Both the position numbers and the translations under genes were made by a program. The notes under the pieces were generated by a model. The model saw nothing but the letters and a program-made list of their open reading frames with translations. It had not been told where the DNA came from and did not search any database. DNA of 24,862 bases from a virus. Of the stretch, positions 3,537 to 24,514 are shown in pieces; the stretch's first letter is position 1, and each line of letters starts with the position of its first letter. Where the stretch lies: positions 1-24,862 of IMG/VR virus record IMGVR_UViG_3300030106_006004; one strand, 5' to 3'.

Positions 3537-6131
3537 ATGGCGATAAGCGAAGAATTAAAACAAAGAATAGAAAATTTCGGCATGGGACGAAGATCCCCAG
3601 CCATGGACAAATTAGCTAACCCAGAAATTTCTATGGCTCCATTTGGTTCAATCGATACATCTGCTGATGTTCAAGCTATGAGAGATCTAGCTGGTAAAAC
3701 CAAAGGAGCCATTTCAAACAAAGATTTAGAAATTTTGAATCAAGCCAGTTCATTAACCCCAGAAGAACGCGCTCAACTCATGCAAGAGATTGAAAACGCG
3801 CGTATGAGAGAGATGGCACCACTTGGTCAAGTTTCTTCACAAATAGAGCAAATGGGCACAGGAGACGATCAATTTCTCGTTCACACTGAGTTTGGAGACA
3901 CAATCGTACCACCACAGATCATCAACGATGATCCAGAGCTTGAGGCAATGCTTCAACGAAAATTTGAGGAATACAACATAACGCCAGAAGAGCGTGTTGT
4001 GGGATCAGGCATTGCGACACTTAATCCGCAGACTGGTCTTCCAGAATACGGTTTCTTCAAGAAACTAATCAAAGGTATAGGCAAAGTCGTTAAGAAAGTT
4101 GCTCCTGTGGCTGCTTTTATACCCGGTATAGGAACTGCATTGGGTGGTGTACTGGGTGGCATAGGCGGTAAAGTTGTCAGTGGAATCAGCAAACTAGCAC
4201 CCGGTCTTGGTAGCACACTAGGAAGTATAGGCTCTTCTGTGATGAGTGGTATTGCAAATCTAGGAGTACCCGGTTTTTCATCGATTGCTGGCGGTACGGC
4301 TGGCGGTTTTCCCGGTATTAAAGGTGCTTTAACGACCAGATCTGGTTTATTTGGTGGCGGTCCTCTCGAAAGGATCATGGGCGCCGATCCCAGCTCAACT
4401 GCTGTAAGAAGTTTAGAGGCTGCTAGAGAAGCTGCGCTTGCTTCTGGTGATACTGCACAAGTTGCAGCGATAGATGCACAGCTTGCGACTTATAAAGCTG
4501 GTACAGACTTGTATAATCGACCACAAATTATTGGCACGGATCCAGCAACAGGTGCTCCTATTTATGCACAACCACAGCAAGGCGGTATTGGTGGGCTTTT
4601 TGGCGGTCAAGGCGGAGGTTTTGGCGGTCAAGGTGGCGGAATGGGCGCTTTAGGAATGGCTGGTTTGGCTGGTCTTGCTGGAACTTTAGGTAAAATGGCT
4701 TACGATGAAACCAAAAAAGACATGGGTGTTCCGATGACGCCAATGACAATGCTTGGTCCTGTTGGGCGTTTCAACATTGAGGCAGAGATTGCTAGAAGAA
4801 TGGGTCAGGAGGCACCAAACCCTGTTGAGTTCGGTTTATTGCCCCAAGGTACATTTCCAGAGCTTTCTGGTGGTAGACCACTAGAAAGTGAAATGATGCC
4901 TTCTATGGGCGTTTCACAGCCTCCTGTGATGGCACCGATTGACATGGTTGATCCAAGACCAATACCTAAAAGACCACCCAGCATTGAGCAGATTCAACCA
5001 CCAGTGATACAAAGACCACCTAGTATCGAATATATCCCAGAAGTTGTAGACGCTCCACCAGTGGTACAACAACCGCCTATGATGCCGATTGATATGCCAA
5101 TCAATATTCCACAGATTGCACAACTGGATATACCGATGGTCATGCCTGACATACCGTTAGGTGACATCACGGTGCCACCTCCAATGCCTGCTGTACAACC
5201 AATGCCTATGCCAAGAAGAGCAGTCGATTCGATTAGACCGCGTATTAGCAGAAGAAGAGGCAGAGGGGTAGGCGCGTTACGAAGAGCCAATGGTGGCGCA
5301 ATAATGAATTACGAAGGCGGTGGAAGTGCAAACAAATACCCAAACGAAGGCTTGGAAGCATTGGCTAGGGTTGCACCAGATGTTGTCAAGAGAATGGGAT
5401 ATGCTGGCGGTGGTCCAATTTACCCCATGGCTTATGCTGAAGGCGGAGCTGTTGCAATGAAAGGCATTAAACCAGAAACTATGGACAAAGTAAGAGGTGC
5501 TAGCGTCTATCCCCCGGAACCCGGAATATATGTTGGCGATGATGTAGATGAGATCATTCTTTCTAGGCAACCGATTCAGTATGACTATGAGAAGATGAAA
5601 AAATATATGGATGAAGCGAGATTGTTTGATGTGTCTCCACGATCTGTTTTGTATCAAGCGTATAAAAATAATGACATTTCCGAAGATGAATATTTCGAGT
5701 TTATATCTAGGGTAGACGATCTTCAAAGGTTAGAGGATGAAAGGAAGGATCAACGCGAAATGGAAAGTTTGTATGACGCGTTTAGTGAAAAAAGATATGA
5801 GAATCCAATGCTCTTAGGAAAAGGAGGCGAGATTCTCCCCATGGCTTATGCTGAAGGCGGTAATGTGAGCATGGAAGATTTTGAAAGAATGAATGGCGGT
5901 ATCAATGGCGCTGGTACAGAAACCAGTGACGATATACCAGCCATGTTATCGGATGGCGAGTTTGTTATGACTGGGCAAGCTGTTAGGGGCGCTGGATCTT
6001 ACGAGATGGCACAAGACAACAGAGGTATAATAAGTTTGATTCCAAACATGCAAGAAGATCGTGAACGCGGAACAAAGCTCATGTATGACCTCATGGATGC
6101 GTTTGATAGCAAAGCAGGGAGACTGTCTTAA
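3537..6131 (+). CDS. Large internal virion / ejection-type protein (864 aa)
   Basis: Several zones can be read. Residues about 50-70 hold KTKGAISNKDLEIL, a motif shared with the 489-aa virion protein downstream. Residues about 110-170 carry the FLVHTEFGDTIVPP and ITPEERVVGSGIATLNP blocks known from marine phage structural proteins. A basic patch (KKLIKGIGKVVKK) leads into a glycine-zipper, membrane-active-looking stretch (about 190-245). A Gly/Gln-rich linker, a Pro/Met-rich region (about 460-560) and an Arg-rich patch follow. Near the C-terminus (about 797-815) is SDDIPAMLSDGEFVMT, a hallmark of phage virion proteins. Two copies of PMAYAEGG occur. The architecture fits a protein stored in the capsid or tail and ejected with DNA. 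Its TAA overlaps the next ATG. Confidence 0.7.
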   Translation: MAISEELKQRIENFGMGRRSPAMDKLANPEISMAPFGSIDTSADVQAMRDLAGKTKGAISNKDLEILNQASSLTPEERAQLMQEIENARMREMAPLGQVSSQIEQMGTGDDQFLVHTEFGDTIVPPQIINDDPELEAMLQRKFEEYNITPEERVVGSGIATLNPQTGLPEYGFFKKLIKGIGKVVKKVAPVAAFIPGIGTALGGVLGGIGGKVVSGISKLAPGLGSTLGSIGSSVMSGIANLGVPGFSSIAGGTAGGFPGIKGALTTRSGLFGGGPLERIMGADPSSTAVRSLEAAREAALASGDTAQVAAIDAQLATYKAGTDLYNRPQIIGTDPATGAPIYAQPQQGGIGGLFGGQGGGFGGQGGGMGALGMAGLAGLAGTLGKMAYDETKKDMGVPMTPMTMLGPVGRFNIEAEIARRMGQEAPNPVEFGLLPQGTFPELSGGRPLESEMMPSMGVSQPPVMAPIDMVDPRPIPKRPPSIEQIQPPVIQRPPSIEYIPEVVDAPPVVQQPPMMPIDMPINIPQIAQLDIPMVMPDIPLGDITVPPPMPAVQPMPMPRRAVDSIRPRISRRRGRGVGALRRANGGAIMNYEGGGSANKYPNEGLEALARVAPDVVKRMGYAGGGPIYPMAYAEGGAVAMKGIKPETMDKVRGASVYPPEPGIYVGDDVDEIILSRQPIQYDYEKMKKYMDEARLFDVSPRSVLYQAYKNNDISEDEYFEFISRVDDLQRLEDERKDQREMESLYDAFSEKRYENPMLLGKGGEILPMAYAEGGNVSMEDFERMNGGINGAGTETSDDIPAMLSDGEFVMTGQAVRGAGSYEMAQDNRGIISLIPNMQEDRERGTKLMYDLMDAFDSKAGRLS
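5423..5446 (+). repeat. 24-bp direct repeat, copy 1
   Basis: An exact 24-base repeat encoding PMAYAEGG lies here and again at 5837-5860, 414 bases apart and in the same frame of the 864-aa virion gene. The identity holds at the DNA level, including third codon positions. Confidence 0.9.
5837..5860 (+). repeat. 24-bp direct repeat, copy 2
   Basis: Second exact copy of the PMAYAEGG-encoding repeat. It precedes the conserved SDDIPAMLSDGEF-type C-terminal block, while copy 1 precedes an acidic, Tyr-rich segment. The layout suggests duplication or recombination between virion gene modules. Confidence 0.9.
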
Positions 6132-7483
6132 TGGCGAATGGCAATCCTTATGTATCTGGAATCACTCGTGTAGAGGGTGGTTTTGACCCATACAGCACTC
6201 AACTTTTTTATGGTTTGGGTGGCAGAGGTGGATTTATACCCGGTGCAATGCGAGCAGCAGAGCGCACATTCTTCGATGAGCAAGGCAGAGCCAGAGTCAT
6301 ACCCAGACAAATCGCTGAATTTACACCAGATCAGCTACAAGCGATGCAGTTGGCAAGGCAACAAGTTGGCATACAACAACCATATATAGCAGGCGCAGAA
6401 CAAGCGATTAGAGGCTCTGTAAGCGAGCTAGGTACAGGATTAGACGAAGCCAGACGAAGGCGAATGGAGTCTTTGGATGTTCTGGCTGGCGGAATTGGTG
6501 GTTTGGGTGAAAGACTTGGTGAAGCTGAACAGCTTATTCGTGGCACAACAGGTGCTTACGATCCATCAATGGCACAACGATTCTTCGATCCTTATGAAGA
6601 TCGTGTGGTTCAACAAACCATTTCTGATGTCATGGAGCGTGGCGATCAGGCAGATATTGCAGCCAGAGCAAGAGATATTGGACGCGGTGGCGAGTCTGCT
6701 TTCGGTTCAAGAGCCAGATTAGGTGCTGAAGAGCGTCAGAGAGCCCTCGGTAGGGGTCTAGGTGAGGCACTAGCAGGGATTCGTTCTAGGGGCTTTACAG
6801 AGGCTCAGAGAGCAGGTATGGGTGAATTTGCAAGACAACAACAGGCAGCAAGGACTGCTGCAACAGGTTTAGCTGGTTTGGGTGGCACACGATTTGGCGC
6901 AGCACAAACATTGGCTGGCGGATTGACTGGTTTGAGTGGTCTTGAACAGCAAATTGCACAGCAAAGAGCTGGCGCACAGGCTGGACTAGGTTCTGGTTTG
7001 ATGCAGATTGGACAAGCACAACAACAGGCTGGCGCATTTGGTTTGGGTCAACTTATGAACATTGGTGGCTTACAACAACAGCTTGCACAGCAACAACTGG
7101 AAGCTCAAAGACAAAATTTGATGCAAGCACAACAAGCACCGTTGGCTCAATATCAATCATTGTTGCCTTTTATACAGGCAGCGCCACGCGCTTCATCGCA
7201 GACACAAACGACTTTTGGACCAAGACCAAGCCCATTACAAGCTGGATTAGGCGTTGGTTTAAGCGCATTGGGTGCATTGGGTAGTTTCTTTAATCAAGGA
7301 CAGCAACCACAGAATGTAAGATACCAGCAACCACAGGGATATTACCCACCACAACCGCAGGTACCACAACCACAGCCAGCCCCACAAGCAAGCATGGGTT
7401 TCCCAATCGGTAATCCAGCAAACTATGATCCAAGAATTGCGACAGGAGTAGGTAATCCTTACTCTGGTGGCGGAGGATTCTAA
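6131..7483 (+). CDS. Virion protein, ejection/adaptor-like, Gln/Ala-rich (450 aa)
   Basis: The central region (about residues 144-200) reads YDPSMAQRFFDPYEDRVVQ, then an alternating helix with RGGESAFGSRARL. This follows the 'NPY...vv...l.di...ag..GGSRqal' pattern common to internal or tail-associated proteins of podo- and siphoviruses. Residues 230-345 are heptad-like and rich in Q, A and G (LAQQQLEAQRQNLMQAQQ), predicting long helices. The tail (about 395-425) is Gln/Pro-rich and probably disordered. Start and stop are both fixed by TAATG overlaps with neighbours, so it is translationally coupled. It has no recognisable enzyme motif. I infer a structural or DNA-ejection role from order and composition. 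Confidence 0.7.
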   Translation: MANGNPYVSGITRVEGGFDPYSTQLFYGLGGRGGFIPGAMRAAERTFFDEQGRARVIPRQIAEFTPDQLQAMQLARQQVGIQQPYIAGAEQAIRGSVSELGTGLDEARRRRMESLDVLAGGIGGLGERLGEAEQLIRGTTGAYDPSMAQRFFDPYEDRVVQQTISDVMERGDQADIAARARDIGRGGESAFGSRARLGAEERQRALGRGLGEALAGIRSRGFTEAQRAGMGEFARQQQAARTAATGLAGLGGTRFGAAQTLAGGLTGLSGLEQQIAQQRAGAQAGLGSGLMQIGQAQQQAGAFGLGQLMNIGGLQQQLAQQQLEAQRQNLMQAQQAPLAQYQSLLPFIQAAPRASSQTQTTFGPRPSPLQAGLGVGLSALGALGSFFNQGQQPQNVRYQQPQGYYPPQPQVPQPQPAPQASMGFPIGNPANYDPRIATGVGNPYSGGGGF

Positions 7484-8952
7484 TGGCAATCAGCAGGGCA
7501 CAGATACCTGAACAGATCGATGCTTACCAAGAGGGTGGCGATGTCTTGGGTTCAGACGATAGGCAACAGCCGAGTATGCAAGAGCTTTCCGATTTTGATA
7601 AATCAGTAAGAGAATACGAACAGAGATTTCAAGGTTTAACTCCTCGTCCTGCACCCATGAATTTTTTTGATCTTGCTTCTGAGCTAGGCGCTGGGTTATT
7701 GCAGACTCCGAATGTTGGTGGGGCTTCTGCATTTACTGGTTTAGGTGTCGGTTTTAGTCGTGCTGCGGAGCGTTTGAAGAAAGAAGAAGAGGATTATCAA
7801 AAACAACTACAACAAGTCAGGATGCAAGCAATGCAACTTGCTTTAGAAGATGAGAGAAGAGCCGAAGAATATTTACAACAGGTGAGCTTGAAGTTAATGG
7901 GCGATACCAATAAAGAAGTAAAAACAATCGACATACAATACACAGATCCTAAGACTGGCAATGTCATTGAGACAGTTATGGACAAAAGTAGCGCTTTATT
8001 TAAAGAAATTATGGAGGATCCTGCAAAATTTAAAGCAAGGACCATAAAAACGCCATTGGTTGATATGTCTGGTACAAATAAACAGTATGAGGACATAACC
8101 AAGGAACTGGCGAAAGAAATTGTTGCTGGCTACAAAGTTTTAGCAGAAGAAGCAAGGGGTGCAACACAGACACTAGATAAGATAGAAGCTGCTAGATATT
8201 TCGCGGAAGGACTTACAGAGCAAGAATTTGGACCGATAGCACTGCTTCAAGTGGGGATTGGCAGTCTACTTACGCAACTGGGCTTTGGTAATCTAGTCGA
8301 TCAAGAAGCTCTTGCAGCACAGACTGCTGTAAACTCTGTGGGCACAGGTCTTGCAATGGGTTTGGTTGGTCAAACAAAAGGTGCAATCTCCAACAGAGAG
8401 ATGGACATGTTCTTAAAAGCATCGGCTACGCTAGGAAACAACAAGGCAGGTTTTCTTCAAATCATAGATATTACAGAACGCATAAATGAAAAGACGCTAA
8501 GAGCTTCTGAAGAATGGGGACGAGAGCTTGACAAGTTAATGGAAGAAGAAAAGGGCGTTGCAGAGATTGCCAGTGCATATACAACTTTTTTAGCTGATTT
8601 TCACAAGAGAAATCCATTGTTTGATTACGGATCTGGTAGTGCGAATGATTATGATGAGAATTTGTCTCTGGAAGAAAACCTTGAAAGATTGGACAAAAAC
8701 AGTGAGGCATACAGGATTTTGGCGCAAACAACTGCTGAAGGGATCGATGCTTTTAGAGGCATCAGCGCAAAACACGCTGCATACACGCCAGTCGGTAAAG
8801 TGGCTCAAGACATAAAAGGTGTGCCTGATGGTGCGAAATCTGCTGGTGTTTATTACAACCCAGATGACGAAGACGATCCACGCAACGGCAAACCGATGTG
8901 GCAAAGTTCTGATGGAAGATATCATGTAGAGGAAGACGAGGAGAGCCAGTAA
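7483..8952 (+). CDS. Internal virion protein (489 aa) with KGAISN motif
   Basis: The protein begins with a disordered, Gln/Asp-rich segment, then AAERLKKEEEDYQKQLQQVR (about 90-110), which should form a charged coiled coil continuing to about residue 145. The second half includes AMGLVGQTKGAISNREMDMF (about 286-306). This is the same short motif seen near the N-terminus of the 864-aa virion protein and one I associate with phage internal virion proteins. The C-terminus is acidic and ends in EEDEESQ. No catalytic motif is seen. TAATG junctions on both sides place it in the same coupled operon. I infer a capsid-internal or ejected protein. Confidence 0.65.
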   Translation: MAISRAQIPEQIDAYQEGGDVLGSDDRQQPSMQELSDFDKSVREYEQRFQGLTPRPAPMNFFDLASELGAGLLQTPNVGGASAFTGLGVGFSRAAERLKKEEEDYQKQLQQVRMQAMQLALEDERRAEEYLQQVSLKLMGDTNKEVKTIDIQYTDPKTGNVIETVMDKSSALFKEIMEDPAKFKARTIKTPLVDMSGTNKQYEDITKELAKEIVAGYKVLAEEARGATQTLDKIEAARYFAEGLTEQEFGPIALLQVGIGSLLTQLGFGNLVDQEALAAQTAVNSVGTGLAMGLVGQTKGAISNREMDMFLKASATLGNNKAGFLQIIDITERINEKTLRASEEWGRELDKLMEEEKGVAEIASAYTTFLADFHKRNPLFDYGSGSANDYDENLSLEENLERLDKNSEAYRILAQTTAEGIDAFRGISAKHAAYTPVGKVAQDIKGVPDGAKSAGVYYNPDDEDDPRNGKPMWQSSDGRYHVEEDEESQ

Positions 8953-12910: not shown

Positions 12911-13249
12911 ATGAAACTAATCACTAAAGAGATAGCTGCCAAACTATCAAAAAATATTGGCGATGCAAATGTTGATATGCCTTACTTGAAGTTGTTTAAC
13001 CCAGTGGGTTCAGCGACTTGGCTTATCACAGAATACAAGGAAGAGTCTGGTAGGCTCTTCGGCTTGTGTGATCTTGGCATGGGTTTTCCTGAGCTTGGTT
13101 ATGTGAGCCTGCATGAACTTGAGTCAATTCGTTTGCCGATGGGCTTAGGGATTGAGCGAGACATGTATTTTGAACCAACTAAAACTCTAGCTGAGTATGC
13201 AAGTGCTGCTCGAAAAGCTGGACACATTGACACTTATGGAGGTGCGTGA
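12911..13249 (+). CDS. DUF2958 family protein
   Basis: The product shows the DUF2958 signature almost end to end: LKLFNPVGSATWLITEY (about residues 27-43), then FGLCDLGMGFPELGYVSLHE (about 50-69), then LPMGLGIERDMYFEPTKTLA (about 75-94) and an Ala-rich helix. The length of 112 aa matches the usual full domain. The family is found in phages, plasmids and integrative elements, often beside replication or accessory genes; its biochemical role is not established as far as I know. GGGGGAAA precedes the ATG. Its stop overlaps the next start (TGATG). This is a confident family call without a function. Confidence 0.85.
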   Translation: MKLITKEIAAKLSKNIGDANVDMPYLKLFNPVGSATWLITEYKEESGRLFGLCDLGMGFPELGYVSLHELESIRLPMGLGIERDMYFEPTKTLAEYASAARKAGHIDTYGGA

Positions 13250-13763: not shown

Positions 13764-13797
13764 ATCTGTCACATGGTATATTTATCGTGTGACAGAT
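13764..13797. promoter_or_regulatory. Perfect inverted repeat over the oxygenase start
   Basis: ATCTGTCACA (13764-13773) and TGTGACAGAT (13788-13797) are perfect 10-base arms around a 14-base AT-rich spacer. The right arm contains the GTG start (13789-13791) of the next gene. There is no T-run after it, so it is not a standard terminator. As DNA it could be an operator; as RNA a hairpin that hides the start. Confidence 0.55.
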
Positions 13798-14511
13798 TAT
13801 CATTTAAAGAACTATTTGCTATCGATGCAATCGCATTGGTGTATTAACCATGCGCTTTATGAATCCGTCCAAAACACATTGCCACTGATCGCAAAGTTCA
13901 ATGCTGGTGATGGCACTACTCGTCTGGAAGAAACACCGATCAAGAAACATCTAAAGAAGATCCACCCAGAGATTTACAAGGTGCCACTGTTTCGCAGGCA
14001 CTTTTGCAAACTGATGATGGACGAGATCAAGCACATGCAAAAGGAATTCAGTTTTGAGACCAACAAAGACGAGGACGAGTTGCGCCAGATCCCTGAGATC
14101 GTTCTGAGTGAGCGCTGCCCAGAGTTGTATCGCAACATGTGGTTCATTGTGCAAACCGTTTTGAATCCAATTTTCTTCTCGATCTGGCAAAGACATTGTG
14201 GATCCATAGCAAGTGTGCAGATCGCCAACTACAATCTGAAAGACAAACAACAAGGTGCATGGCATCATGACGAGAGCGCAGATCTCACGGTTGTCGTGCC
14301 ACTGAATACTGGGAAGTACGAAGGTGGCGGTACGGAATTTTATAATTATGGGATCGTAGATCCGTTACCGAGTGGTCATGCTTTGATCTTTCCAAGTTTC
14401 ATACACATGCACAGAGGTTTGCCAGTCGATACTGGAGATCGCTACTTACTGGTTTTCTGGCTGTATGATCGCAGTCGTGTCAACTACCTGTACGAAAACG
14501 CTCTACCATAG
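13789..14511 (+). CDS. 2-oxoglutarate/Fe(II)-dependent oxygenase (240 aa)
   Basis: The C-terminal half has the full 2OG-Fe(II) oxygenase signature: HxD at H159-x-D161 (AWHHDESADLTVVVPLN), a GGGTEF strand (about 178-183), distal histidine H208 (FIHMHRGLPV) and the 2-oxoglutarate-binding arginine R218, exactly ten residues later. Such enzymes hydroxylate or demethylate protein side chains, small molecules or nucleic-acid bases; the substrate here is unknown. The N-terminal 130 residues are helical and charged with no known domain. The GTG start lacks a clear ribosome site and lies in a perfect inverted repeat; an ATG at 13825 is the alternative. The 3' end overlaps the opposing exonuclease gene by nine bases. 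Confidence 0.8.
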   Translation: MTDYHLKNYLLSMQSHWCINHALYESVQNTLPLIAKFNAGDGTTRLEETPIKKHLKKIHPEIYKVPLFRRHFCKLMMDEIKHMQKEFSFETNKDEDELRQIPEIVLSERCPELYRNMWFIVQTVLNPIFFSIWQRHCGSIASVQIANYNLKDKQQGAWHHDESADLTVVVPLNTGKYEGGGTEFYNYGIVDPLPSGHALIFPSFIHMHRGLPVDTGDRYLLVFWLYDRSRVNYLYENALP

Positions 14512-19290: not shown

Positions 19291-19497
19291 TTGAAAGGAG
19301 ATAAGATAGTCAAAAAAAGCTCATTCAAGTTTTTCGTTATGAGAATGTATCATGACAACAGGCAGGAGAGATGGATGAATGGAGTTGATCCATACAAAAA
19401 CATGTTCCGCTACTACAGAAGCAATAGAGCTTTTTTAATTAACAAGTACAAAGAGGAATCAGGCGTTGCCGAAGAAACCAAAGAAGCCACTGGTTGA
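19291..19497 (+). CDS. Small basic hypothetical protein (68 aa), TTG start
   Basis: A TTG start is chosen because GGAG (19280-19283) lies seven bases upstream; the first in-frame ATG would remove the first 16 residues or so. The product is basic and Arg/Tyr-rich (MRMYHDNRQERWMNGV, YKNMFRYYRSNRAFLINKYK) with an acidic tail. It overlaps the small terminase gene by 32 bases. The family is unknown; such small basic proteins beside terminases can be DNA-binding, but that is only a guess. Confidence 0.55.
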   Translation: MKGDKIVKKSSFKFFVMRMYHDNRQERWMNGVDPYKNMFRYYRSNRAFLINKYKEESGVAEETKEATG

Positions 19498-19960
19498 ACC
19501 ACCAGAGAAGTTTGAATTGATAATGAGTGAGTTCAAACTCACAGACATGCAAGCGTCATTCGTTTGGCATTACACTGAGGGTGCGTGTGGTCAGACAGAA
19601 GCAGCACGAAGGGCTGGTTACGAGTTCCCAGCAGCATCAGCGAATAAGCTACTGAAAACAGAGAGAGTGGTCAAAGCTGTCAAGATTAAACAAGACGAGC
19701 TGGCAGAGAAGTATGCGATCACACCACAGAAAACTGGAGCGATGCTCTGGAAGATTGCAGAGACATCGTATGAGAATGGTTACATGGGACCAGCCGTGTC
19801 AGCGATCAAAGAGTTGAACCAGCTTGCAGGGCTCTCAATCAATAGAAGTCAGAACATAAACATCAACGCGAATGTGGACAAGATGAGCAAGGAGCAGATC
19901 AAGGAGCGCTTGGAAAAACTGTTGGGAGTTTCCACAGAATATGAAGATGACGATTACTAA
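19466..19960 (+). CDS. Terminase small subunit
   Basis: The 164-aa product matches Terminase_2-type small subunits: LTDMQASFVWHYTEGACGQT (about residues 25-44), then EAARRAGYEFPAASANKLLK (a helix-turn-helix-like DNA-recognition unit) and RVVKAVKIKQDELAEKY. The middle contains NGYMGPAVSAIKELNQLAGL (about 104-123), the usual 'A.A...AL.ELN.l.GL' oligomerisation block, and a C-terminal helix (SKEQIKERLEKLLG). It recognises the packaging site and recruits the large subunit, which is not in this window. The start is TTG, with AGAGGA upstream, and is inferred from the basic MPKKPKKP lead typical of the family. A T-rich terminator-like hairpin follows. Confidence 0.88.
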   Translation: MPKKPKKPLVEPPEKFELIMSEFKLTDMQASFVWHYTEGACGQTEAARRAGYEFPAASANKLLKTERVVKAVKIKQDELAEKYAITPQKTGAMLWKIAETSYENGYMGPAVSAIKELNQLAGLSINRSQNININANVDKMSKEQIKERLEKLLGVSTEYEDDDY

Positions 19961-21149: not shown

Positions 21150-23552
21150 ATGGATTTCTATGCCTCAAGACTGCCCTATCGCTCCAGCGAAGAAGAGAGA
21201 GCCTATCGCGAAGGACTGGGCGCTTTACCAGCTCAAGCCACTTGGATGGCTGGGCTTATGGCACCCAGCGCAGGACTGAGCGATTACTTTGGTTATTACC
21301 CAGAGATGCCCACTGCTGAACAACCGATACCGACTGAGTATCTACCCAGCTTTGCAGAAAACATAGAAAACAAAAGATACATGGACGCGCTCTATCAAGG
21401 TCTGGGCGTTTTGGGAGATGTCGCCTACGCCAGTACACCTGTGACTGGGATGATGGGACCCCTAGTGGGTGCAACATTGAAAGCAGGAAGTGGTATCGGT
21501 AAAGCCACCAAGGGCACCAAAGGAACAAAAGGCGGTTTGGAGTCCCTGCCAGAAAGTGCGCGTGTCGCAGATGAACTCAAAATCAAACGCGATGATCTCA
21601 TGAACCAGTACGGCAGATATGAACCTTATAGAAAAAATGTGGACTTTAAATTCGATTACAATTTAGAGACACCCACAGAAATGTATTCACCCAGCTTAGA
21701 GGCACTGATCTATAAAGCACCACCGAACTTAAAAGGAAAACAGATCTCTGAATGGTTAAAAGGGAACACCAACAAAGGCGTTAAACCCAAAGAGCTGGAG
21801 TTCTTAGACATAGATAATATCACCGAGACCTACCCAGACATCACCATACCTGAGCTCTTAAACGAGGTGCAACCAGTCAAGATTTCAAAAAGATACTATG
21901 AAGACACCGCCGATTTTCGATTCGATTACGATGTCGACACACCTACAAGAGACCCACTGGATGAATCCTATAAACTTTATGACAGCATCATAGAAGACAT
22001 CAATTATGACATTGAACAAGAAGATTTTTCTGGATTGGCAGAAGAATTTGCGGAGTATTATGAGGGCACCAGAGGCATAGATAATATAAGTACAGACCTG
22101 AATGAACCTAGTTATCCCAGAATGATAGAACAAATTAAAAAAGATCAGGCAAGTGGAAAGAGTAAAGAAACACTCGATGAAATCATTGAAGAGTTTGCAG
22201 AAAAAAGATATCTTGAATACCCTTACTATAAAATCACACCACGCAGTGTCGGTAACAACGAATTTTATATAGACAGAAATACCTTTGCCTTTGGCAACGA
22301 AGAGGTTGGTTATCAATTATTTGTAGATGGTGAAAGAGTCACAGACTTAAACAACATTGCATACAGTCAAAACGAGGCACAAATACAACTCCAAAGAGCA
22401 ATGGGTGCAGACGACCCAGATATGTACACAGGCGGTGGTACCATGTACAAACAATACATCGATGAAAACTTACCCGGTGGTTCGAATTACCAAGAAGTTG
22501 TATTCACATGGGATGATGCGCCTGATGGTGAACATAAAGTTTACATGACACATTTTGATGATGATAACCAAATAGCACACGCTTTGACCAGAGATCGAAT
22601 ATTAGAAGATGGTTCCAGCACAAAACACATCGATGAGCTCCAATCCGATCCAGCCAGAGAAGGATCTAGGCATGGTTATGTAGGCGATGAAAATTACATC
22701 AAAGCTAATGAGATCATTAATAGTAAACTCCCAGAATATGAAAAAAATATAAATGATCTTTTAGATATCTATGAGAGTCAAATAGAATTATCGTTTATTC
22801 CGTCCTCCAGAAAAGAAATAATGAAAGAAGAGTTATTGAGACTGAGAACGAAAGAAATGAATCAAATGAGAGAATTTGGAGCATACATGAGAGAATTTGG
22901 TTTTGAAGATGTAAAAACAAGTCTAAGATCCATAAGAAATGATTTACAAGATTTTGGTGACGATGGAATAGTAAACAATTTAATTGATAAGACCTCTGGG
23001 CTGGAAAGTCGTGCAGGAAGATTACGAACCGACATGTACGATCTAATCAGCAAAAATAAAAAAGCTGTTCCAAACATCCCATACAAAGACGATTACTACA
23101 AAATGGGAATCAAGAATCTACTCCTTGACGCCATCGATGAAGGCAAAGATGCAATCTCCATTTCTACTTCTGCTGTTATGAAAGCCAGATACAGCGATCA
23201 GTATGAAACTTTCTACGAAACACTCTACGACAAAAAAATCCCTTCGTTCATGAAGAAACTGGCAAACCAGTATGGCGGTAAGTTTAAGAAAGGTAGTTTA
23301 GATTTAGAAGATGTATATGGCAAAGGCATGGCTGAACTAGGAGAAAAACAGGGAACATACCTTAGATATGGCAGAGAGGGCAAAGATCCAATGATTTTTG
23401 AAAACTTAGATAAATTCGAAGCCACCATCATAGAAATCACCCCAGAAATGAAAGCCAAAATACTCGAAGAAGGCTTGCCAACATTTAAACGAGGCGGTGA
23501 AGTCAGATCTTCGCTGTACGATATTGACATTTTTGGAGCCGAGATGAGATAA
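21150..23552 (+). CDS. Polyvalent-protein-like large phage protein (800 aa)
   Basis: Several blocks match the conserved core of large phage 'polyvalent' proteins (LPD-type). YSPSLEALIYKAPPNLKG plus GVKPKELEFLDIDN lies at about residues 178-215. NYQEVVFTWDDAP, IAHALTRDRILEDG and IDELQSDPAREGSRHGYVG lie at about 447-512 and correspond to 'yrEvl.tl...aHir..dR....G...l.EiQSDwhQ.gr..GY'. A closing block (PNIPYKDDYYKMGIKNLLLD, then ISTSAVMKARYSDQ, then ITPEMKAKILEEGLPTF) runs to the C-terminus. The QSD-WHQ motif is degenerate here. An N-terminal Gly-rich stretch (about 90-115) and a repeated DFxFDYxxxTPT motif (residues 165 and 255) are visible. The biochemical role is unknown; ejection into the host is a guess. 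No good ribosome site is seen. Confidence 0.65.
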   Translation: MDFYASRLPYRSSEEERAYREGLGALPAQATWMAGLMAPSAGLSDYFGYYPEMPTAEQPIPTEYLPSFAENIENKRYMDALYQGLGVLGDVAYASTPVTGMMGPLVGATLKAGSGIGKATKGTKGTKGGLESLPESARVADELKIKRDDLMNQYGRYEPYRKNVDFKFDYNLETPTEMYSPSLEALIYKAPPNLKGKQISEWLKGNTNKGVKPKELEFLDIDNITETYPDITIPELLNEVQPVKISKRYYEDTADFRFDYDVDTPTRDPLDESYKLYDSIIEDINYDIEQEDFSGLAEEFAEYYEGTRGIDNISTDLNEPSYPRMIEQIKKDQASGKSKETLDEIIEEFAEKRYLEYPYYKITPRSVGNNEFYIDRNTFAFGNEEVGYQLFVDGERVTDLNNIAYSQNEAQIQLQRAMGADDPDMYTGGGTMYKQYIDENLPGGSNYQEVVFTWDDAPDGEHKVYMTHFDDDNQIAHALTRDRILEDGSSTKHIDELQSDPAREGSRHGYVGDENYIKANEIINSKLPEYEKNINDLLDIYESQIELSFIPSSRKEIMKEELLRLRTKEMNQMREFGAYMREFGFEDVKTSLRSIRNDLQDFGDDGIVNNLIDKTSGLESRAGRLRTDMYDLISKNKKAVPNIPYKDDYYKMGIKNLLLDAIDEGKDAISISTSAVMKARYSDQYETFYETLYDKKIPSFMKKLANQYGGKFKKGSLDLEDVYGKGMAELGEKQGTYLRYGREGKDPMIFENLDKFEATIIEITPEMKAKILEEGLPTFKRGGEVRSSLYDIDIFGAEMR

Positions 23553-23963
23553 GTGGTTGACTCAAGAAGAAAAGGTGCAGCGTTTGAACGCGAGGTAGTG
23601 AACAAGATCAACGCATTTGCAGAAGAAAACAACCTCCAGTTTTCCTGCAAGCGAAATCTCGATCAATACCAGACAAGAAATCAGTGTGACATTCCGATTC
23701 CCAACCATGCAATCGAGTGTAAGCACTACAACTCTGGTAATTGGTTGAAACCAGCTTGGTGGAAACAAGTGTGCGAAGCCAGCAACGGATCGATCCCAGT
23801 TTTGATCTTCAAATTCAATCGAGTACCGCCCAGAGTTTGCGTTCCTTTGTATGCAATCAACCTAGAAATGGAACGCACGAATGATATAACTGCCGTCCTG
23901 CCAATGGATGACTGGTTATACCTCCTAAAAACAAATTGGACCCAATACGAGACAATGAAATGA
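23553..23963 (+). CDS. Holliday-junction-resolvase-like PD-(D/E)XK nuclease
   Basis: The 136-aa protein has the Hjc-like nuclease core: SRRKGAAFEREVVNKIN with E12/E14, SCKRNLDQYQTRNQCDIP with D46, and HAIECKHYN with E55-x-K57. A helix with PAWWKQVCEA follows, as in small archaeal and phage resolvases. It should cut branched DNA to resolve recombination intermediates before packaging; the substrate is inferred. The GTG start follows the preceding stop with no gap, and an ATGA overlap joins it to the oxygenase gene. It complements the exonuclease and ssDNA-binding protein elsewhere in the window. Confidence 0.8.
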   Translation: MVDSRRKGAAFEREVVNKINAFAEENNLQFSCKRNLDQYQTRNQCDIPIPNHAIECKHYNSGNWLKPAWWKQVCEASNGSIPVLIFKFNRVPPRVCVPLYAINLEMERTNDITAVLPMDDWLYLLKTNWTQYETMK

Positions 23964-24514
23964 ACCAAAAAACCCCAAAACACGGCATCACAGGTGGCTT
24001 TTGCATCGAAAAAAACGAAGTTGTGAGGTATTTAGACCACATCAAAGGCAAAAAAGGTGTGAAAGGCGAGATTTACAGCGATAAAACCACGAAAAAGGAC
24101 GAAAAGTACCGCGATGTGATGATTTACCGCCTCGATCAGAGCGATATTGAGCTCTATGAGCCGATTCAGACCATCGCAAACAAGGTCAATCGCTATTTCA
24201 ACTACCAGTTGGATGGAATCGAGCAAGCACAGGTCATGAAATACCAATCTCCGTCCAATGGCTACGACTGGCACATGGATCTGGGAGCAGAGGGCGTGTC
24301 TCTGACCAGAAAAATAGGTGTATCGGTTTTGCTCAACGAAGATTACAAAGGCGGTGAACTTTTTTTTAGAGGTGGCAACAGCGAAGAGTCAATCAAACCC
24401 AAAACTGGTGAGGTGGTGGCTTTCTCTTCATTCGTTCATCACAAAGTCAACCCTGTGACGAAAGGAAAAAGATTGGTGCTGGTATTCTGGCTTACTGGTC
24501 CTTGTTTTCGTTAA
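23960..24514 (+). CDS. 2OG-Fe(II) oxygenase, PKHD-type (184 aa)
   Basis: The start is the ATG at 23960, overlapping the previous stop (ATGA); an in-frame TTG at 23936 is less likely. The product shows the prolyl-4-hydroxylase-like fold: VMKYQSPSNGYDWHMDLG with H105-x-D107, IGVSVLLNEDYKGGELFF (about 118-135), KPKTGEVVAFSSFVHHKV with H161, and R171 ten residues on. All three metal ligands and the 2-oxoglutarate arginine are present. Relatives are common in cyanophages and other marine phages; the substrate is unknown and could be a host or virion protein. Its TAA shares the four bases TTAA with the stop of the opposing gene. Confidence 0.85.
   Translation: MNQKTPKHGITGGFCIEKNEVVRYLDHIKGKKGVKGEIYSDKTTKKDEKYRDVMIYRLDQSDIELYEPIQTIANKVNRYFNYQLDGIEQAQVMKYQSPSNGYDWHMDLGAEGVSLTRKIGVSVLLNEDYKGGELFFRGGNSEESIKPKTGEVVAFSSFVHHKVNPVTKGKRLVLVFWLTGPCFR

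What the first reader, a model, noticed from the sequence alone, without database searches (positions are those of the whole stretch)
21150..23552. Polyvalent-type protein with a degraded QSD-WHQ motif
The order of blocks matches the core of large phage polyvalent proteins as I remember it, yet the usual EIQSDWHQ-type run reads DELQSDPAREG, losing W, H and Q while keeping E, Q, S and D. It is also much shorter than typical polyvalent proteins and stands as a single gene next to a resolvase and an oxygenase rather than in a giant fusion. It may be a stripped-down version of a module whose activity is still unexplained.
Basis: partly seen in the sequence, partly recalled or inferred. Interest (0 to 1): 0.7.

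Follow-up and report, generated by a model that had tools for sequence, protein, structure and literature searches.

The report
Swappable phage effector with GNAT-like fold
A marine phage gene in its DNA-packaging region joins a constant leader to one of several interchangeable, probably injected, weapon domains; here that domain is a widespread, unclassified module whose predicted fold resembles acetyltransferases, so the gene is not a decayed fragment of a giant protein.

Summary
The ORF is real, and its C-terminal half is homologous to the EIQSDWHQ module found in many phage proteins (115 bits against a profile built without it; best of 1,000 shuffles 6.9). The "degraded" reading is mostly wrong. 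W and Q are replaced throughout its clade (ELQSDLHT/VHK/IHT); E, Q, S, D are near-invariant family-wide. Only the H-to-A change is peculiar to this copy. Its length, 800 aa, is the family median (811). No Pfam or NCBIfam model covers the module. AlphaFold models of the window protein and a canonical member both resemble GNAT acetyltransferases, with a coiled-coil hairpin inserted between β4 and α3. The gene's first ~120 residues are a leader shared by 79 ORFs in 76 loci, nearly all flanked by terminase, resolvase or oxygenase genes. About 26 carry this module; others carry ART-PolyVal, PBECR5 or RelA/SpoT-like payloads. In a close relative the flanks are 98% identical, the payload 83%. Best reading: a polymorphic, probably virion-delivered early effector with an exchangeable payload, here a GNAT-like domain. 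Delivery and activity are inferred. It works like polyvalent proteins and MuF toxins but fails strict membership of either.

The parts
21150..23552 (+). Whole gene (P0001, 800 aa): leader + pre-domain + GNAT-like module
21234..21515 (+). N-terminal leader (res 29-122), Gly/Ala-rich hydrophobic end; shared by 79 ORFs with different payloads
21690..21866 (+). Small helical pre-domain (res ~181-239; YS..LE..I..AP..LKG.QI..WL......GVK..ELE), also upstream of the module in canonical proteins
22425..23501 (+). EIQSDWHQ-family module (res ~426-784), predicted GNAT-like fold
22635..22679 (+). Motif ELQSDPAREGSRHGY (res 496-510): E496, Q498, S499, D500 kept; the H position (502) is A
22689..23060 (+). 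Coiled-coil / helical insertion between beta-4 and alpha-3 (res ~514-637); length varies in the family
23070..23192 (+). PNIPYKDDYYKMGIKNLLLDAIDEGKDAISISTSAVMKARY (alpha-3 and beta-5; canonical PDAPFK..WHELALKR..)
23217..23501 (+). LYDK helix (invariant Y693) to closing ITPEMKAKILEEGLPTF block
19466..19960 (+). Terminase small subunit, upstream border of the payload slot
23553..23963 (+). RusA-like/PDDEXK resolvase, slot neighbour
23936..24514 (+). 2OG-Fe(II) oxygenase, slot neighbour

Best explanation
The gene encodes a single-payload early effector. A leader of about 120 residues, probably for packaging into or ejection from the virion, is joined to one of several interchangeable payloads in a fixed slot between the small- and large-terminase genes. 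Here the payload is the widespread EIQSDWHQ module, most likely a divergent GNAT-fold transferase: E496 and Q498 lie on beta-4, where GNAT sheets splay open, and Y693 and the K block before alpha-3 may complete the site. It would modify a host macromolecule as the DNA enters. Shown: module homology, leader sharing, slot conservation, payload turnover, fast payload divergence. Predicted by model: GNAT-like fold. Inferred: delivery, catalysis, substrate.
For: Homology: 115 bits vs 6.9 for the best shuffle. Fold: canonical L006 model (pLDDT 85.5) and window model (79.8) both align to GNATs, Z up to 9.9 (132 residues, 4.2 A) and 9.2 (130, 3.9 A); 43 and 31 of the 50 listed chains are acetyltransferases, and most of the rest match only the coiled coil. 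Leader: 79 ORFs, about 26 with the module; other payloads hit ART-PolyVal (2.5e-9), PBECR5 (5.9e-20) and RelA_SpoT (1.2e-5, just under cut-off). Slot: TerS, resolvase, oxygenase or TerL flank it in nearly all loci. Turnover: window vs L002 flanks 98.4% nt identity (dN/dS 0.12-0.13), module 83.5% (0.67); L357 and L388 share TerL at 98.5% but their leader genes differ almost wholly. Delivery hint: in HTVC028P the module ends a protein encoded among the internal virion proteins; L112 joins it to an SLT transglycosylase.
Against: Direct Foldseek against PDB is weak (best E 0.04). Profile-profile comparison with 29 GNATs aligns only 27 columns, P about 0.005-0.009. No contiguous acetyl-CoA pyrophosphate loop is present: the coiled coil interrupts it, and the conserved R is S in most of this clade. 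Virion packaging is not shown for any leader protein. The missing H and a dN/dS near 1 in part of the module could mean lost activity.
Confidence: 0.55

Rival explanations
1. The module is a GNAT-fold pseudoenzyme or binding scaffold. The conserved E/Q/S/D block is structural or binds a host partner, and the protein acts by binding, for instance as an inhibitor of a defence protein.
For: No recognisable cofactor loop; H lost here; high dN/dS (0.98-1.03) in the stretch before the motif and in the coiled coil.
Against: E, Q, S and D are nearly invariant over 285 diverse sequences, along with H, Y and K/W positions, a pattern more typical of an active site. Sibling payloads in the same slot are enzyme families.
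Confidence: 0.25
2. It is a virion structural or ejection protein (channel or scaffold), not an effector.
For: HTVC028P gp34 lies among the internal virion proteins; the slot is in the packaging region; the leader has a hydrophobic Gly/Ala-rich end.
Against: The window phage already has separate ejection and tape-measure-like proteins at 3537-8952. Structural proteins would not be swapped for ART, PBECR5 or RelA/SpoT payloads or diverge far faster than the flanking genes.
Confidence: 0.1
3. This copy is a decaying allele: an effector losing function after the H-to-A change.
For: QSDPAREG occurs in no other module found; four adjacent codons are changed between identical stretches of DNA; raised dN/dS.
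Against: The frame is intact over 800 codons; the leader is under purifying selection (dN/dS 0.04 with L003) and so is the C-terminal third of the module (0.37). H is also L in HTVC028P and two other members, so H is dispensable in some lineages.
Confidence: 0.2

Closest known systems
Phage polyvalent proteins (Iyer et al. 2017, PMC5512222)
   Same: Same payload classes (ART-PolyVal, PBECR, RelA/SpoT) in the same slot; the module itself occurs fused to LPD22 and SLT in large proteins; GNATs are also reported among polyvalent domains
   Different: One predicted effector domain per polypeptide plus a constant leader, not several disparate domains in a giant; the module matches no Pfam LPD model
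MuF polymorphic toxins of temperate phages (Jamet et al. 2017, PMC5576092)
   Same: Constant N-terminal part plus exchangeable C-terminal toxin (ART, RNase, RelA-like), gene beside portal/terminase, proposed loading into the head
   Different: No MuF domain found by Pfam in the leader proteins scanned; contigs related to aquatic phages such as HTVC023P/HTVC027P; no search for an immunity gene was made
GNAT toxins AtaT/KacT/TacT/GmvT
   Same: Among the closest solved folds for both models
   Different: No significant sequence similarity; insertion in the beta-4/alpha-3 loop; no toxin-antitoxin pair seen
T4 Alt (head-packaged ADP-ribosyltransferase)
   Same: Concept of a packaged early host-modifying enzyme (as told in PMC5512222)
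   Different: Different fold; packaging is demonstrated for Alt, not here

Membership tests
EIQSDWHQ module family (unnamed) | Profile similarity over the ordered blocks SSH..., EIQSD, PDAPFK..W, FYDK, ITPEM | tested here: met
   115 bits in two collinear segments; best shuffle 6.9
EIQSDWHQ module family (unnamed) | Invariant E, Q, S and near-invariant D of the motif | tested here: met
   E496, Q498, S499, D500 retained
Polyvalent proteins sensu Iyer 2017 | Two or more effector domains of disparate activity in one polypeptide | tested here: not met
   Only one predicted effector module; no significant Pfam or NCBIfam domain in P0001
Polyvalent proteins sensu Iyer 2017 | Contains domains recurrent in polyvalent proteins | tested here: met
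   The module co-occurs with LPD22; BFVD matches named LPD and ART-PolyVal
Polyvalent proteins sensu Iyer 2017 | Injected with the DNA | not testable with these tools
   Context only
GNAT superfamily | beta/alpha fold of GNATs | tested here: met
   Two AlphaFold models, Z up to 9.9 and 9.2; predicted, not solved
GNAT superfamily | Sequence-profile similarity | tested here: inconclusive
   No Pfam GNAT hit; hhalign 27 columns, P 0.005-0.009
GNAT superfamily | Contiguous R/Q-x-x-G-x-G/A acetyl-CoA loop between beta-4 and alpha-3 | tested here: not met
   Loop split by the coiled-coil insertion; S506-R-H-G509-Y510 in the window
MuF polymorphic toxins | N-terminal MuF domain | tested here: not met
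   No MuF hit in P0001 or in ten other leader proteins
MuF polymorphic toxins | Constant N-terminus with exchangeable toxin-like C-termini, near packaging genes | tested here: met

The most novel reading that the evidence does not exclude
Uncultured aquatic phages carry a polymorphic-toxin-like system not described in the sources searched: a leader family fused to exchangeable payloads (a GNAT-like module, ART-PolyVal, PBECR5, RelA/SpoT-like, others) at one TerS-TerL slot, delivered with the genome; and the EIQSDWHQ module, absent from Pfam, is a large new clade of GNAT-fold transferases with a coiled coil in its cofactor loop.
Probability: 0.5. Interest if true: 0.72.

Novelty: new variant of a known kind. 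Interest (0 to 1): 0.6.

Why it matters
A GNAT-like fold prediction makes its activity testable. The leader gives a sequence handle for finding further early effectors in uncultured phages: whatever follows the leader in the slot is a candidate. It would extend the MuF idea of a constant delivery part with exchangeable toxins to an aquatic phage group related to pelagiphages HTVC023P/HTVC027P.

Tried and rejected
Pfam, NCBIfam, PHROGs and PADLOC scans of P0001: nothing significant. PHROG 'endolysin' (phrog_7348) for canonical members was rejected as a function: it is a 2,564-position family and the label probably comes from a fused SLT domain such as in L112. A sequence search of solved structures with profile A3 found nothing. 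Foldseek's top PDB row (an RNA ligase) has probability 0.09 and TM 0.12. A compensating frameshift as the source of DPAREG was rejected, because the DNA alignment with L002 is gap-free with identical flanks. Other QSDPAREG hits in viral contigs are in unrelated proteins. No leader was found in named phages. The papers searched held no mention of the motif.

Full report
Observation. The ORF at 21150-23552 (+) encodes 800 aa. It is followed by a RusA-like/PDDEXK resolvase (23553-23963) and a 2OG-Fe(II) oxygenase (23936-24514) and preceded by a terminase small subunit at 19466. The window is an IMG/VR virus record of 24,862 bases. P0001 itself matches nothing at significance in Pfam, PHROGs or NCBIfam.

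Homology to the canonical module. A profile from those sequences alone gives P0001 115 bits in two collinear segments; 1,000 shuffles reach at most 6.9. Canonical proteins also carry an upstream FYS...KGTG...GVK...E block, and the window has the corresponding YSPSLEALIYKAPPNLKGKQISEWL...GVKPKELE.

Is the motif degraded? A second pattern on PDAPFK..WHE, unbiased for the motif, gave 86 usable sequences. In the combined set of 285, E, Q, S and D are almost invariant, with W 274, H 283 and Q 279. The close relatives read ELQSDVHK (L002) or ELQSDLHT, and all other leader-bearing relatives keep H but not W or Q. So W and Q are clade-wide replacements, and only H to A is specific to the window. HTVC028P reads EMQSDLLQ, so H is dispensable elsewhere too. 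The window and L002 DNA differ in four adjacent codons between identical stretches, without a gap. QSDPAREG in a module occurs in no other viral contig searched.

Size. Of 130 complete module ORFs, the median is 811 aa, 95 are at most 1,000 aa and 11 exceed 2,000 aa. The window protein is of ordinary size.

Fold. AlphaFold2 models were made for canonical L006 (81 sequences, pLDDT 85.5, pTM 0.76) and for window residues 151-800 (86 sequences, pLDDT 79.8, pTM 0.70). The order of strands and helices (three strands ending in beta-4, a coiled coil, then alpha-3, beta-5, alpha-4, beta-6, beta-7) is that of GNATs with an insertion between beta-4 and alpha-3. VIA-align Z reaches 9.9 over 132 residues (L006 vs AtaT) and 9.2 over 130 (window vs AtaT). 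Acetyltransferases fill 43 and 31 of the 50 listed rows, the others being mainly coiled-coil matches and the ICL2 C-terminal domain. Limits: plain Foldseek gives E no better than 0.04, and hhalign against 29 GNATs aligns only alpha-3 and beta-5, P 0.005-0.009. The insertion varies from about 5 to 234 residues. Invariant columns in the 86-row alignment are E449, H468, E496, Q498, S499 and Y693 in P0001 numbering.

Leader and slot. Residues about 29-122 recur in 79 ORFs of 76 loci (some duplicates), about 26 of them followed by the module. Other payloads hit ART-PolyVal, PBECR5 and RelA_SpoT (just below cut-off), and one has an HELIH zinc-peptidase-like stretch seen by eye. L125 and L379 contain two leaders in one polypeptide, and L387 and L381 have two adjacent leader genes. 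Almost every locus has TerS, resolvase and/or oxygenase upstream or TerL directly next to it. In the window the leader gene precedes resolvase and oxygenase; in most module-bearing relatives it follows them. TerL itself is not in the window.

Turnover. Window vs L002: resolvase and oxygenase 98.4-98.5% nt identity, dN/dS 0.12-0.13; module 83.5%, dN/dS 0.67, near 1 before the motif and in the coiled coil, 0.37 in the last third. L358 vs L361: flanks 93.9-97.8%, payload 70%. L357 vs L388: TerL 98.5%, while the stretches after the leader are only 23% identical in protein. Raised synonymous divergence in the payload points to allele exchange as well as faster protein change. This fits an arms-race locus.

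Delivery. The nearest annotated case is HTVC028P gp34, whose C-terminus is the module and whose gene lies between internal-protein genes. L112 joins the module to an SLT transglycosylase. In PH1 the module opens a 1,299-aa protein encoded directly after a gene annotated as putative TerL, which PHROGs calls a portal. None of this shows packaging.

Comparison. Iyer et al. 2017 (PMC5512222) describe polyvalent proteins, two GNAT families and 40 LPDs, but the text holds no 'QSD' string. Their supplementary alignments were not readable here, so the module may be one of their LPDs without a Pfam model. Jamet et al. 2017 (PMC5576092) describe MuF toxins with the same logic beside portal/terminase genes. 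The window protein works like both but lacks a defining feature of each.

Verdict. Not a decayed giant, but one allele of a polymorphic effector gene whose payload is a widespread, unclassified, probably GNAT-fold module.

Noticed in passing
L125:5732-9151 and L379:3643-7248: Two leader copies in one polypeptide, each followed by a different payload; suggests fusion of neighbouring slot genes.
   Followed up: partly
L127:4197-5153 and 5157-5756: Leader plus pre-domain and the module are in two consecutive ORFs: a split gene or a frameshift.
   Followed up: no
C-terminal tails of leader ORFs (window 23489-23552, FKRGGEVRSS...): A GG(x)V-type tail occurs in 59 of 79 leader ORFs vs 100 of 384 other ORFs; possibly a processing or packaging signal.
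   Followed up: partly
L002:2166-2951 (-): A gene next to the oxygenase resembles Mom-like GNAT DNA modification proteins by eye.
   Followed up: no
window 13789-14511 and 23936-24514: Two separate 2OG-Fe(II) oxygenase-like genes in one phage contig.
   Followed up: no
window 12911-13249: DUF2958 gene (E 9e-36), function unknown.
   Followed up: no
L407:3-1199: Leader payload with an HELIH zinc-peptidase-like motif but no Pfam hit; several other payload clusters also have no known family.
   Followed up: partly
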